Part shown: piece after piece, positions 4,308 to 33,413 of the stretch | How the letters are laid out: each line of letters starts with the position of its first letter | Numbering within the stretch: position 1 is the first letter of the stretch | Assembly: GCA_015272395.1 (NCBI GenBank) | Contig: JACYLQ010000018.1 | Span: forward strand, 1 to 64,000 | Direction: 5' to 3' | From: Calothrix sp. C42_A2020_038 | Lineage (GTDB): Bacteria; Cyanobacteriota; Cyanobacteriia; Cyanobacteriales; Nostocaceae | Length of the DNA: 64,000 bases | The notes under the pieces: generated by a model | What the model was told of the DNA's origin: nothing | What the model saw: only the letters and a program-made list of their open reading frames with translations | Databases searched by the model: none | Made by a program: the position numbers and the translations under genes

Positions 4308-5083
4308 TTAAACTTTCTCCAAACTAAACTGCGAGGTAATCGTGAGTTAACGTTGATTGTGTATCTAAAAGCTTAATATAGACCTTAAAATAAATTAAGT
4401 CAATACCTGTGTGCGAAAACTCTCCTTTTTAAGGATGAATGTAGTATGTATAGCAATCCGAAATCATTTATGAGAAAATACGGTTATGAAAGTTAAGTAA
4501 ATTAAAATACAAGTGTACATATGCTACTATGTAAATTCAGTAATTTGAGGGTTTTATCAAAAATAGCCAAGATAAACGTGAAATAACGCGAGCAATGGCA
4601 GTAAAAATGCTGCTAATTCGGTGGTATAATCGCAAAGATATAATCATAATGCTAATACTAAATATTTCGTTCAGGTTTATTAGTACGTGGAAAAAAGTAT
4701 TTTTTCAAAACGGTGTAGAAGGACTAAAGCTAGAGGATGTTTGAAAAGTCGGGAATGAGGTATAAAATATTTCTCAGTATCAGATGTAAATAGATAGTAG
4801 ACAGCAGTGTTTGGGGTTTTTCTCTTATTTGTGATTATAAGTGGTAATATTCTTAACTTATTAATTAAAAGTCGGGAGCATGGCAAGAAAATCTCAGGCG
4901 TATGTCATACGTACAAATTTTAACTACTGAAGAAATTTTATACCTTGTGAAAATATTTGCAAGATAACCCTGTATTTAGTTGTGTATGTATGGCTACTCC
5001 AGTAGTTCAATAATTCGTAAAATATTCCGGATGCACTAACAGTTAAAGTGGATAGATAAAATAGATGCACCCTAATTCATCGT

Positions 5084-30467: not shown

Positions 30468-30533
30468 TCCTCACAAGTTCCTCAAATTATCTCTGTATAA
30501 ACAAAGTTGTAAGGTAAATAGGCATACAAACAA
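30468..30533 (+). promoter_or_regulatory. Conserved promoter block with paired CCTCA boxes (30665 gene)
   Basis: CCTCA boxes at 30469 and 30480, again 11 bp apart, followed by AAATTATCT, TATAAAC and AAGGTAAA. The match to 23676-23740 extends over about 60 bases, far beyond the boxes. It ends about 130 bp before the start of the small gene it probably drives. Confidence 0.65.
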
Positions 30534-30664
30534 TCAAAAACTTTGTACAACAATAAGGTCAAATTACAACATCTTTAGAAAAGCTAAGAAATTTGTGAAT
30601 AGATTTTAATATTATGTAAAAAACTGGACAATGGTTAATATCTCAGGCATTGAGGAGAATTATC

Positions 30665-30871
30665 ATGACTATTTGGGTAAACGAACAAATTGATGCATCA
30701 GGCATGGTTCACGCATGTATTGCGACCTGTAGTGAGTCCCATGCTCAAGATTGCCATAAATCATTTCAGCAAAATTTGACCGAAATTCAAAAAGCCTGGG
30801 GTTGGCAGGCAAGATTACGGAAGGTTACATCTTGGGATGAAGTACCTGTAAATGCATTGAAGCTAAGTTAG
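30665..30871 (+). CDS. Small protein of the stress island (68 aa)
   Basis: Begins MTIWVNEQIDASGMVHACIA and contains a CxxxxxAxxC-like pair, WGWQARLRKV and a C-terminal WDEVPVNALKLS. GAGGAGA lies 6 bases before the ATG at 30665. It is controlled by a copy of the CCTCA promoter block shared with usp. No family is recognised; cysteines at about 17, 22 and 30 could be redox-active or bind metal. Confidence 0.6.
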   Translation: MTIWVNEQIDASGMVHACIATCSESHAQDCHKSFQQNLTEIQKAWGWQARLRKVTSWDEVPVNALKLS

Positions 30872-31304: not shown

Positions 31305-32933
31305 ATGAAAATTTTAGTTGTTGAGGATGATGTATTTTTCTGTGAGGCACTGACAGCTATCTTAACTAGTTACAATTACGTAGTAGAGACGGTAGCTGAT
31401 GGCGAAGCTGCTGAGTATTTAATTGAGAGTTATAACTATGATTTGATACTGCTTGATATTGTGCTACCCAAGCTGGATGGTATCAACCTTTGTCGCAAAA
31501 TTCGGGCCAAAGGTTTACTTGTACCAATTTTGTTATTAACAGGAAATAATAGTAGTCAAGATAGAGTACTAGGTTTAAATGCAGGCGCCGATGATTATTT
31601 GGTTAAACCATTTGATAAAGAGGAATTAATTGCGCGAATACATGCTTTGTTGCGCCGCAGCCAAATCCCTTTACAATCAGTATTAACTGTAGGTGACTTA
31701 AAACTTGATACGGTTAACAGTGAAATTACGTATTGTAATAAAATTTTAGCTTTAACACCAAAAGAATACGCACTTCTTGAGCTTTTTATCCGAAACAGTA
31801 AGCGAGTATTTAATTGCAGAATGATTTTAGAGCATTTATGGTCGTGTACAGAAACACCGGGAGAAGAAGCTGTTCGTACTCATATCAAAGGGCTACGAAA
31901 AAAGTTAAAAGCAGTAGGGGCACCAGATGATTTAATTGAAACAGTGTATGGAATTGGCTATCGCTTGAAAACATCATCCGAATACCAAAAGCCTAAAAAA
32001 TCTAAATCTTCAAAGCAAAGTCCTTTTATACCACAAAAGACTTCTTTTGATAGATTGGTTAACGAAGAGGAAGGATGTGTTTGCTTAGAAAGTACTATAA
32101 GTGAGCGAGGTTTTTTTTACTTCACTGTAATAATAAGTAAAGATTTATTAAAAGTAAATATCATCCTCACAAGTTCCTCAAATTCTTCTCATAGTTTAAA
32201 ACTAGAGCCGGAAAGCTCGATATTAAAAAAAATCGAAGAGTATTTGAGGAATATAAATATGTCTTTGATACCTTGGCAACCACTCAAAGAGTTAAATACT
32301 CTCCGCCAACAAATCAACCGTTTGCTAGATGAATTTATGCACGGTGAGCAAGCCCATAGCTCGTTCACTAAACTTGAAAATATTACTTGGACACCTGCAA
32401 TAGAACTTAAGGAAAGCGAAACAGATGTTATCCTCAAAATTCAAGTTCCAGGAATTGACCCTAAAGATTTAGATATCCAAGTTAGTGAAAACGCCATTGC
32501 AGTGGCTGGTGAGTATCAAGAAGAAAAAGTCAGTGATAGTAAAGGTTTTTACCGTTCGGAATTTAGCTACGGTAATTTCCAACGTATCATCCCTCTACCA
32601 GTAGAGGTCAAACACGAAGAAGTAAAAGCAGAAGTCAAAGATGGTATTGTAACGCTGACTTTACCAAAATCTGAAAAATCCCATCGCAACATTGTGAAAG
32701 TTGATTTGAATGTGTCAGAAAAAGCACGCGAGGCAATGGCACAAGAACGCTTACACAATGAACATTTGCAGCAAACTATGCATGAACGTGCAGCATCCGA
32801 GCTAGATACCCGCACTTACAGTAATGTTGATGAAGAAGCTCGAAATGCAATGACTGAACAGCGCTTGAATGAAGAACACATACAAGAAACCATGCATAGT
32901 CGCGCAAAAACTGAGCTTGGCGCCGATAATTAA
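31305..32933 (+). CDS. OmpR-type response regulator fused in frame to Hsp20
   Basis: 542 residues in one frame. Residues 1-120 are a receiver domain with acidic pocket Asp8/Asp9, phospho-acceptor Asp51, Thr79 and Lys101. Residues about 128-222 are an OmpR-type winged helix ending ETVYGIGYRL. Residues 223-318 are a low-complexity linker. From Met319 (MSLIPWQPLKEL) comes an Hsp20/alpha-crystallin protein whose ACD spans about 355-460, then a duplicated tail (EAMAQERLHNEHLQQTMHER and NAMTEQRLNEEHIQETMHSR). The linker DNA holds a CCTCA promoter core, and GAGGA lies just before the ATG at 32259. Hsp20 may therefore also be made alone (32259-32933). I know of no regulator-Hsp20 fusion family; loss of stops between neighbouring genes is the simplest origin. 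Confidence 0.8.
   Translation: MKILVVEDDVFFCEALTAILTSYNYVVETVADGEAAEYLIESYNYDLILLDIVLPKLDGINLCRKIRAKGLLVPILLLTGNNSSQDRVLGLNAGADDYLVKPFDKEELIARIHALLRRSQIPLQSVLTVGDLKLDTVNSEITYCNKILALTPKEYALLELFIRNSKRVFNCRMILEHLWSCTETPGEEAVRTHIKGLRKKLKAVGAPDDLIETVYGIGYRLKTSSEYQKPKKSKSSKQSPFIPQKTSFDRLVNEEEGCVCLESTISERGFFYFTVIISKDLLKVNIILTSSSNSSHSLKLEPESSILKKIEEYLRNINMSLIPWQPLKELNTLRQQINRLLDEFMHGEQAHSSFTKLENITWTPAIELKESETDVILKIQVPGIDPKDLDIQVSENAIAVAGEYQEEKVSDSKGFYRSEFSYGNFQRIIPLPVEVKHEEVKAEVKDGIVTLTLPKSEKSHRNIVKVDLNVSEKAREAMAQERLHNEHLQQTMHERAASELDTRTYSNVDEEARNAMTEQRLNEEHIQETMHSRAKTELGADN
32164..32258 (+). promoter_or_regulatory. Promoter core and ribosome site inside the linker, ahead of hsp20
   Basis: CCTCA boxes at 32165 and 32176 (11 bp apart) with AAGTT and AAATT neighbours identical to the block at 30468. 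The downstream TATA part is weaker (TAGTTTAAAAC). GAGGA at 32246-32250 is spaced 8 bases from the ATG at 32259. It would be a normal hsp20 promoter, except that it is also open reading frame. Confidence 0.6.
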
Positions 32934-32944
32934 TTTATGGTTTT

Positions 32945-32974
32945 AAATTCCCGACTTCATGAAGTCGGGAATTT
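32945..32974 (+). terminator. Perfect 30-bp palindromic terminator
   Basis: AAATTCCCGACTTCA is followed directly by its exact complement. The core CCCGACTT/AAGTCGGG is shared with the terminator after clpB (55842-55878). Confidence 0.8.
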
Positions 32975-33148
32975 ACAAAGAAGGCTAGCTGAAAACCCTT
33001 GAAGTTAAGTACTGCCTTGCCTTCATGCCTCTATTCGTTGGGGTCAAATTTAGCAATGCACCTTTAGATAGATTGTTTTGTTGTTTTTCTCATCTGTATT
33101 ATAATACGATACTAAAGATCAAAAAAACAATACAAATTGTTGACAAGG

Positions 33149-33413
33149 TATGTTTACAAGCTGCGTCCAAATCATGAACAAGCTGCCAAAATAAATAATT
33201 GGTTAGAGATGTTACGTTCATCTTACAATTGGTGCTTAAATGACAGAATTGAACAATATTATTACCAGCAATATATTTTTTGTTTTTTGTGGTGATTACT
33301 GTGATTTCAGAACTAAGGGTAAAGCTTGTGTTTTGACATGCTTTGTCAGTAAGAACGGAGCGTCTGGAGAACCTTTTGAGGATATTGAGAGTGCATCGAG
33401 TTCTGCCTCTTGA
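33149..33413 (+). pseudogene. Relic of an IS200/IS605-family tnpB
   Basis: One frame reads YKLRPNHEQAAKINNWLEML, then SSYNWCLNDRIEQYYQQ, the N-terminus of TnpB. A stop and frame change follow, and the next frame reads GDYCDFRTKGKACVLTCFVS up to a stop at 33411. The catalytic RuvC part is absent. It is only the first ~85 codons of a transposon-encoded nuclease, frameshifted. Confidence 0.8.

What the first reader, a model, noticed from the sequence alone, without database searches (positions are those of the whole stretch)
31305..32933. Response regulator fused to Hsp20, with a promoter hidden in the linker
A complete OmpR-type regulator (residues 1-222) and a complete Hsp20 (from Met319) share one frame. 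The linker DNA looks like an ordinary intergenic region: paired CCTCA boxes as in two other promoters of the island, then GAGGA and ATG. Ninety-odd stop-free linker codons in AT-rich DNA are unlikely by chance. Either a real fusion arose by loss of stops, giving a regulator whose output is tied to a chaperone, or both a fusion and a separate Hsp20 are made.
Basis: partly seen in the sequence, partly recalled or inferred. Interest (0 to 1): 0.78.

Follow-up and report, generated by a model that had tools for sequence, protein, structure and literature searches.

The report
Regulator–chaperone fusion left by gene deletion
In one filamentous cyanobacterium, most of a large signalling gene appears to have been lost, and its surviving front end now reads straight through the promoter of a chaperone gene, making a fusion whose function is unproven.

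Summary
31305-32933 (+) is one 542-aa frame: OmpR-type regulator (1-222), 96 stop-free codons, Hsp20 from Met319. The linker holds a promoter shared with standalone hsp20 orthologues: box TCCTCAC-N4-TCCTCA, a -10 at fixed spacing, a ribosome site.

The proposed origin, loss of stops, is not supported. Linker residues 251-279 resemble the tail of a histidine-kinase ATPase domain, collinear and in frame with the 1,589-aa hybrid paralogue in the same genome. Relatives carry hybrid, single receiver, hsp20 on one strand. The gene is best read as a gutted hybrid joined to hsp20's promoter by deletions. Only about 39 codons are read-through promoter-side DNA, so the open frame is not very improbable.

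Of 30 family genomes with this hsp20 (217 searched), only this one is fused. The regulator part is constrained but fast-evolving. I predict free Hsp20 from the internal promoter, plus a 60-kDa fusion whenever the regulator is translated. Function of the fusion is unproven.

By-product: the box co-occurs with this regulator subfamily (159/172 genomes, against 6/45 without).

The parts
31305..31970 (+). REC + OmpR-type DNA-binding domains (residues 1-222), intact D8, D9, D51, T79, K101
   Evidence: 71% identical over 1-246 to the C24 hybrid
31971..32054 (+). tail after the OmpR domain (residues 223-250), loosely similar to the start of the hybrid's linker up to residue 246
32055..32141 (+). likely remnant of the HATPase_c C-terminus of the lost kinase (residues 251-279), in frame
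32164..32180 (+). box TCCTCACAAGTTCCTCA, 11-bp direct repeat, candidate operator
32192..32197 (+). -10-like TAGTTT, TA at +12/+13 after the box as in 49 box contexts
32205..32218 (+). small leader hairpin GAGC...GCTC, present in aligned orthologues
32225..32232 (+). A8 tract on whose length the fused frame depends
32246..32250 (+). GAGGA ribosome site of hsp20
32259..32933 (+). Hsp20 (residues 319-542 plus stop), own ATG
32944..32975 (+). strong hairpin after the stop (fold z -4.8); no T run reported there by the terminator scan

Best explanation
A paralogous copy of a locus found in relatives (RcaC-like hybrid regulator, then single receiver, then hsp20 with its own box promoter, all on one strand) lost its middle, probably through at least two deletions. 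One removed the hybrid from just after the OmpR domain to near the end of its ATPase domain. The other removed the last receivers, the single-receiver gene and DNA up to just before the hsp20 box. The surviving regulator frame now runs without a stop through a short ATPase remnant and through hsp20's promoter and leader into hsp20. Predicted outputs: (a) free 25-kDa Hsp20 from its own transcript starting near 32204, with Met319 as start; (b) a 60-kDa regulator-Hsp20 fusion whenever the upstream ATG is translated, because no stop intervenes. The regulator or its full-length paralogue probably binds the box inside the linker. Shown: the frame, the domains, the conserved promoter, the separate genes in relatives. 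Well supported but not proven: the ATPase remnant. Inferred: the deletions and their order, the transcription start, expression, binding, and any function of the fusion.
For: Frame and domains. Remnant: ungapped 29-residue match to hybrid residues 1295-1323, score 63 against a shuffle maximum of 55, 0 of 500; best ungapped 87-base DNA diagonal in the hybrid locus, 56 of 87; the only two non-self places found in the own genome are both C-terminal ends of kinase ATPase domains; HATPase_c is hybrid residues 1212-1321. Order hybrid, single receiver, hsp20 in L095 and L096; regulator upstream of hsp20 on the same strand within 12 kb in 11 of the 29 other hsp20 genomes (positions read by hand). The own C24 locus keeps hybrid, single receiver and box leader but has no hsp20. 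Promoter/leader conserved: box-to-ATG 94-97 nt in 7 of the 8 rows with the exact box, window included; fixed -10 spacing. Last 33 linker codons score noncoding (-0.276 bits/codon; 5th percentile of long ORFs -0.056), regulator 0.107 and Hsp20 0.255. Regulator constrained: dN 0.149, dS 1.34 against the C24 paralogue.
Against: The remnant is short and only 12 of 29 residues are identical; the linker alone matches no Pfam family at E<=0.01; own-genome E-values are weak (0.04 and 0.08), and the better hit is a different kinase, on C9. Against the L095 and L096 hybrids the score is lower (46 and 49; 2 and 1 of 500 shuffles reach it), and against a third kinase it is not significant (35; 54 of 500). 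The remnant itself also scores below most coding windows (-0.081). No second genome has the fusion, so selection on the linker cannot be measured directly. There are no expression data. The regulator's end branch is long (0.35 against 0.086 for the C24 paralogue), which would also fit a decaying gene. No promoter of the regulator was identified: similarity to the regulator genes of relatives starts at its ATG. L095 and L096 carry a variant box (TCTTCAC...), not the exact one (rows L063 and L064).
Confidence: 0.7

Rival explanations
1. Accident only: the regulator is a decaying relic that is little or not expressed, the fused frame is a coincidence, and only free Hsp20 matters.
For: Fusion in 1 of 30 hsp20 genomes; long regulator branch; remnant drifting at near-neutral ratio, nonsynonymous 0.34 to synonymous 0.41; no coding signal in the last 33 linker codons; 2 of 29 other hsp20 genes are open 39 or more codons upstream by chance; no regulator promoter identified.
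Against: Key receiver residues intact; regulator dN/dS well below 1; no stop in the drifting remnant.
Confidence: 0.4
2. Selected fusion: the chaperone module is a working part of the regulator (for example stabilising it, oligomerising it, or tying its activity to unfolded proteins).
For: Regulator still constrained; linker free of stops despite drift, probability about 0.10-0.17 under neutrality at 0.2-0.3 substitutions per site; no frameshift in it.
Against: Not conserved in any other genome searched; hsp20 keeps its own promoter and start; the locus was picked for being open, which weakens the stop test.
Confidence: 0.18
3. Sequence or assembly error: a miscalled base in the A8 or T8 tract, or a misjoin, hides a stop or missing DNA.
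For: The frame depends on the A8 tract; the two other frames after it stop at 32245 and 32330. The own genome is a 50-contig draft.
Against: T8 is flanked on both sides by in-frame ATPase similarity; the parts are about 20-36% diverged from the C24 copy, so this is not a simple copy-paste of C24.
Confidence: 0.08

Closest known systems
RcaC-like hybrid response regulators of cyanobacteria (REC-OmpR-HPt-REC; RcaC itself recalled, not fetched)
   Same: N-terminal REC-OmpR unit 71% identical to the C24 hybrid of the same genome, which has Pfam Response_reg (5 stretches), Trans_reg_C, Hpt, PAS, GAF, HisKA and HATPase_c; candidate operator is an 11-bp direct repeat
   Different: The window gene has no HPt, no second receiver and no kinase core; it ends in Hsp20
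Standalone box-promoter hsp20 of relatives (Calothrix NIES-4101, C. elsteri, Calothrix PCC 7716)
   Same: 69-73% identical protein, same box, -10 region, leader hairpin and ribosome site
   Different: In the 29 other family genomes with a match the frame is 185-294 codons long, against 546 here
Ordinary OmpR/PhoB-type response regulators
   Same: REC and winged-helix domains with the usual Asp/Thr/Lys
   Different: C-terminal chaperone module and an internal promoter

Membership tests
OmpR/PhoB-type response regulator | REC domain with acidic pair, phospho-Asp, Thr/Ser, Lys | tested here: met
   Pfam Response_reg 3-112, E 3.3e-30; D8, D9, D51, T79, K101
OmpR/PhoB-type response regulator | C-terminal Trans_reg_C winged helix | tested here: met
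   148-221, E 5.3e-21
RcaC-like hybrid regulator | HPt and a further receiver after the OmpR domain | tested here: not met
   No such Pfam match in P0001 at E<=0.01; Hpt 254-336 and five Response_reg stretches in the C24 paralogue
Small heat-shock protein (Hsp20) | alpha-crystallin domain | tested here: met
   PF00011 369-461, E 1.9e-18
Box promoter | TCCTCAC-N4-TCCTCA followed by a -10 at fixed spacing | tested here: met
   32164-32180, TA at 32192-32193
Box promoter | Box bound by this regulator subfamily | not testable with these tools
   Only co-occurrence: 159 of 172 genomes against 6 of 45, Fisher 1.9e-25, relatedness not corrected
Established (selected) gene fusion | Same fusion in more than one species | tested here: not met
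   Only 1 of the 30 hsp20-bearing genomes among 217 searched has it
Established (selected) gene fusion | Fusion protein made in the cell | not testable with these tools
   No expression data

The most novel reading that the evidence does not exclude
A working two-product gene: a DNA-binding regulator permanently tethered to a small heat-shock chaperone, whose own coding sequence contains the operator and promoter that the regulator controls, so that fusion and free Hsp20 form one autoregulated unit born by deletion of a kinase. In the long transcript the box half-site TTCCTCAAAT (32174-32183) is perfectly complementary to the hsp20 ribosome site ATTTGAGGAA (32242-32251), which could keep free Hsp20 from being made off the fusion mRNA.
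Probability: 0.13. Interest if true: 0.65.

Novelty: new variant of a known kind. Interest (0 to 1): 0.4.

Why it matters
It is a readable example of how a fusion gene can be born: a duplicated signalling locus, internal deletions, and a promoter turned into linker codons, with a kinase remnant still marking the path. It also shows that an open frame across two domains does not by itself mean a selected fusion. The side result, a box tied to a widespread hybrid-regulator subfamily and placed before stress and fermentation-like genes, gives a testable regulon in these cyanobacteria.

Tried and rejected
Loss of stops between two neighbouring genes: rejected, because the linker carries an in-frame ATPase-tail-like remnant and the order in L095/L096 has a kinase of 1,352-1,442 aa in between.

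Linker as a new globular domain: no Pfam family. The AlphaFold model from a seven-row alignment was poor (mean pLDDT 44.7, linker blocks 21-41), so I made no fold search. No Rfam, PHROGs, NCBIfam, PADLOC or PDB search was made.

Hsp20 remnant at the C24 locus: no tblastn match better than E 1.4. The same fusion on a plasmid: no record covers 80% of the query (capped at 5000 records). Fusions of other regulators with Hsp20 in other phyla were not searched.

Literature: four exact box strings are in no held paper. Searches on regulator-Hsp20 fusions, RcaC repeats, fermentation regulons, orphan regulators and leaders listed nothing on this among the rows shown, of which I saw listings and starts of abstracts only. 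OrrA was considered as a regulator of the box; the passages I saw in PMC13131328 and PMC12157317 name no binding motif. Heat-sensing leader: the window leader folds with z -1.95; the alignment fold shows few compensatory changes (4 of 22 pairs); not pursued.

Limits of the counts: genomes with and without the regulator were sorted by hand at E<=1e-72; 13 of 172 with it lack the box and 6 of 45 without it have the box. The reversed control pattern is not zero in all genomes (for example 3 in G001 and 3 in G006). Tandem counts use listed hits only, and one search's list was cut off. One search also lists a few short frames of this regulator subfamily elsewhere (for example 246, 249 and 251 codons), so loss of the kinase part is not unique to this genome.

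Full report
What is there. The frame 31305-32933 (+) encodes 542 residues without an internal stop. Pfam finds a receiver (3-112), an OmpR-type DNA-binding domain (148-221) and Hsp20 (369-461). The linker is residues 223-318. Genomes given as same genus have contigs whose lengths equal those of Calothrix sp. PCC 7716, Dulcicalothrix desertica PCC 7102 and Calothrix sp. NIES-4105, so the host is a filamentous cyanobacterium of that group.

The hsp20 half looks like an ordinary gene with its own promoter. This hsp20 subfamily occurs in 30 of 217 family genomes at E<=1e-45; the frame that holds it is 546 codons here and 185-294 in the 29 others. Upstream DNA is homologous in the nearest orthologues: box, leader with a small hairpin, GAGGAATATAAAT-ATG. 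Of the 8 rows with the exact box, box-to-ATG is 94 nt here, 95-97 nt in six and 119 nt in one. These steps are not multiples of three, as expected for noncoding DNA. In 49 distinct box contexts among the loci held, T (92%) and A (100%) stand 12 and 13 bases after the box; the window has TAGTTT there (32192-32197). The last 33 linker codons score as noncoding in this frame.

The regulator half resembles the front end of a much larger kinase. Its subfamily occurs in 172 of 217 family genomes at E<=1e-72; most of the listed matches lie in open frames above 500 codons, but a few are short (for example 246, 249 and 251 codons). The closest own paralogue, on C24, is a 1,589-aa hybrid with five Response_reg stretches, Trans_reg_C, Hpt, PAS, GAF, HisKA and HATPase_c. 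In L095 and L096 the order on one strand is hybrid, single receiver, hsp20, with a variant box before hsp20 (rows L063 and L064). From the positions, 11 of the 29 other hsp20 genomes have the regulator upstream on the same strand within 12 kb; two have it divergent within about 1.1 kb (compare), one divergent at 13 kb, and for the remaining 15 no listed regulator lies that near.

The linker seems to record the deletion. Residues 251-279 align without gaps to residues 1295-1323 of the C24 hybrid, the end of HATPase_c (domain 1212-1321): 12 of 29 identical, score 63 against a maximum of 55 in 500 shuffles. Against the L095 and L096 hybrids the scores are 46 and 49 (2 and 1 of 500 shuffles reach them), and against another C24 kinase 35 (54 of 500). 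Of 2,993 real 54-codon open stretches from 18 of the fetched own-genome loci, 13 scored at least 63, and by eye all 13 are receiver, kinase or OmpR sequence. At DNA level the best ungapped 87-base diagonal in the hybrid locus is this one, 56 of 87. An own-genome search with a 43-residue piece gave two other places: the C24 hybrid at this point, and the C-terminal end of another kinase on C9. The E-values are weak (0.08 and 0.04), so the case rests on agreement of place, frame and order. On this reading about half of the linker is old coding sequence and about 39 codons are promoter-side DNA.

Reciprocal loss. On C24 the hybrid and single receiver are intact and are followed by a near-identical box (first base differs) and leader, 54 of 67 bases identical to the window, but no hsp20 is found there. 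The window kept hsp20 and lost the kinase. Duplication followed by complementary loss is the simplest reading. The tree places the window regulator just outside the hybrids of C24, L091, L010 and L012 (forks 93/80 and 90/75, not among the well-supported ones) on a long branch, so its exact place is unsure.

Is the fusion kept by selection? For: the regulator has dN 0.149 and dS 1.34 against the C24 paralogue; three-point estimates with L091 (my arithmetic; dS is near saturation) give dN/dS of about 0.17 on the window branch and 0.05 on the C24 branch. The remnant has drifted (nonsynonymous 0.34, synonymous 0.41 against C24; 0.22 and 0.53 for C24 against L095 and against L096) yet holds no stop. 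Against: neutral drift of 0.2-0.3 substitutions per site, my estimate for the time since deletion, leaves no stop with probability 0.165-0.098; the locus was picked for being open; the last 33 linker codons have no coding signature; and 2 of the 29 other hsp20 genes are open at least 39 codons upstream. I call it undecided.

How it most likely works. Free Hsp20 is made from the internal promoter. Translation from the regulator's ATG must yield the fusion, since nothing stops it. The box is probably the operator of this regulator subfamily: 159 of 172 genomes with the regulator have the box, against 6 of 45 without (hand sort; Fisher 1.9e-25; relatedness not corrected). The nine exact boxes of the own genome stand, among others, before hsp20, a universal stress protein (Pfam), and proteins that by eye look like a pyruvate-formate-lyase activase, an acetyl-CoA-synthetase-type protein and a CBS-domain protein. 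That this is a low-oxygen or fermentation regulon is an inference.

Verdict. It is most likely a deletion-born fusion, seen in one genome, laid over a live promoter: interesting as gene-birth anatomy, unproven as a functional protein.

Noticed in passing
window 23676, 30468, 32164; nine sites in the own genome: TCCTCAC-N4-TCCTCA box with a fixed -10, found in 165 of 217 family genomes and strongly co-occurring with the RcaC-like regulator subfamily; possibly an undescribed regulon (four exact strings absent from held papers).
   Followed up: partly
L099 around 12089 (own contig C24): Orphan box and leader with ribosome-site-like sequence but no hsp20 behind it.
   Followed up: yes
window 32174-32183 and 32242-32251: Perfect 10-base inverted repeat between the box half-site and the hsp20 ribosome site; both would be together only in a read-through transcript.
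   Followed up: no
window 33149-33293: Frame that by eye resembles the N-terminus of a TnpB-type transposon protein, ending in a stop, just downstream of hsp20; a possible agent of rearrangement.
   Followed up: no
window 32710-32930: The Hsp20 C-terminal extension carries two similar repeats; Calothrix NIES-4101 and C. elsteri have two, PCC 7716 and NIES-4105 one.
   Followed up: no
window 30650-30870: 73-codon ORF of unknown function behind the box at 30468.
   Followed up: no
L013 2561-4849 and 5676-8204: In Calothrix NIES-4105 the hsp20 lies between a NorB-type nitric oxide reductase and a PEP-utilising enzyme with a PPDK_N domain, which would fit an anaerobic-metabolism setting.
   Followed up: no
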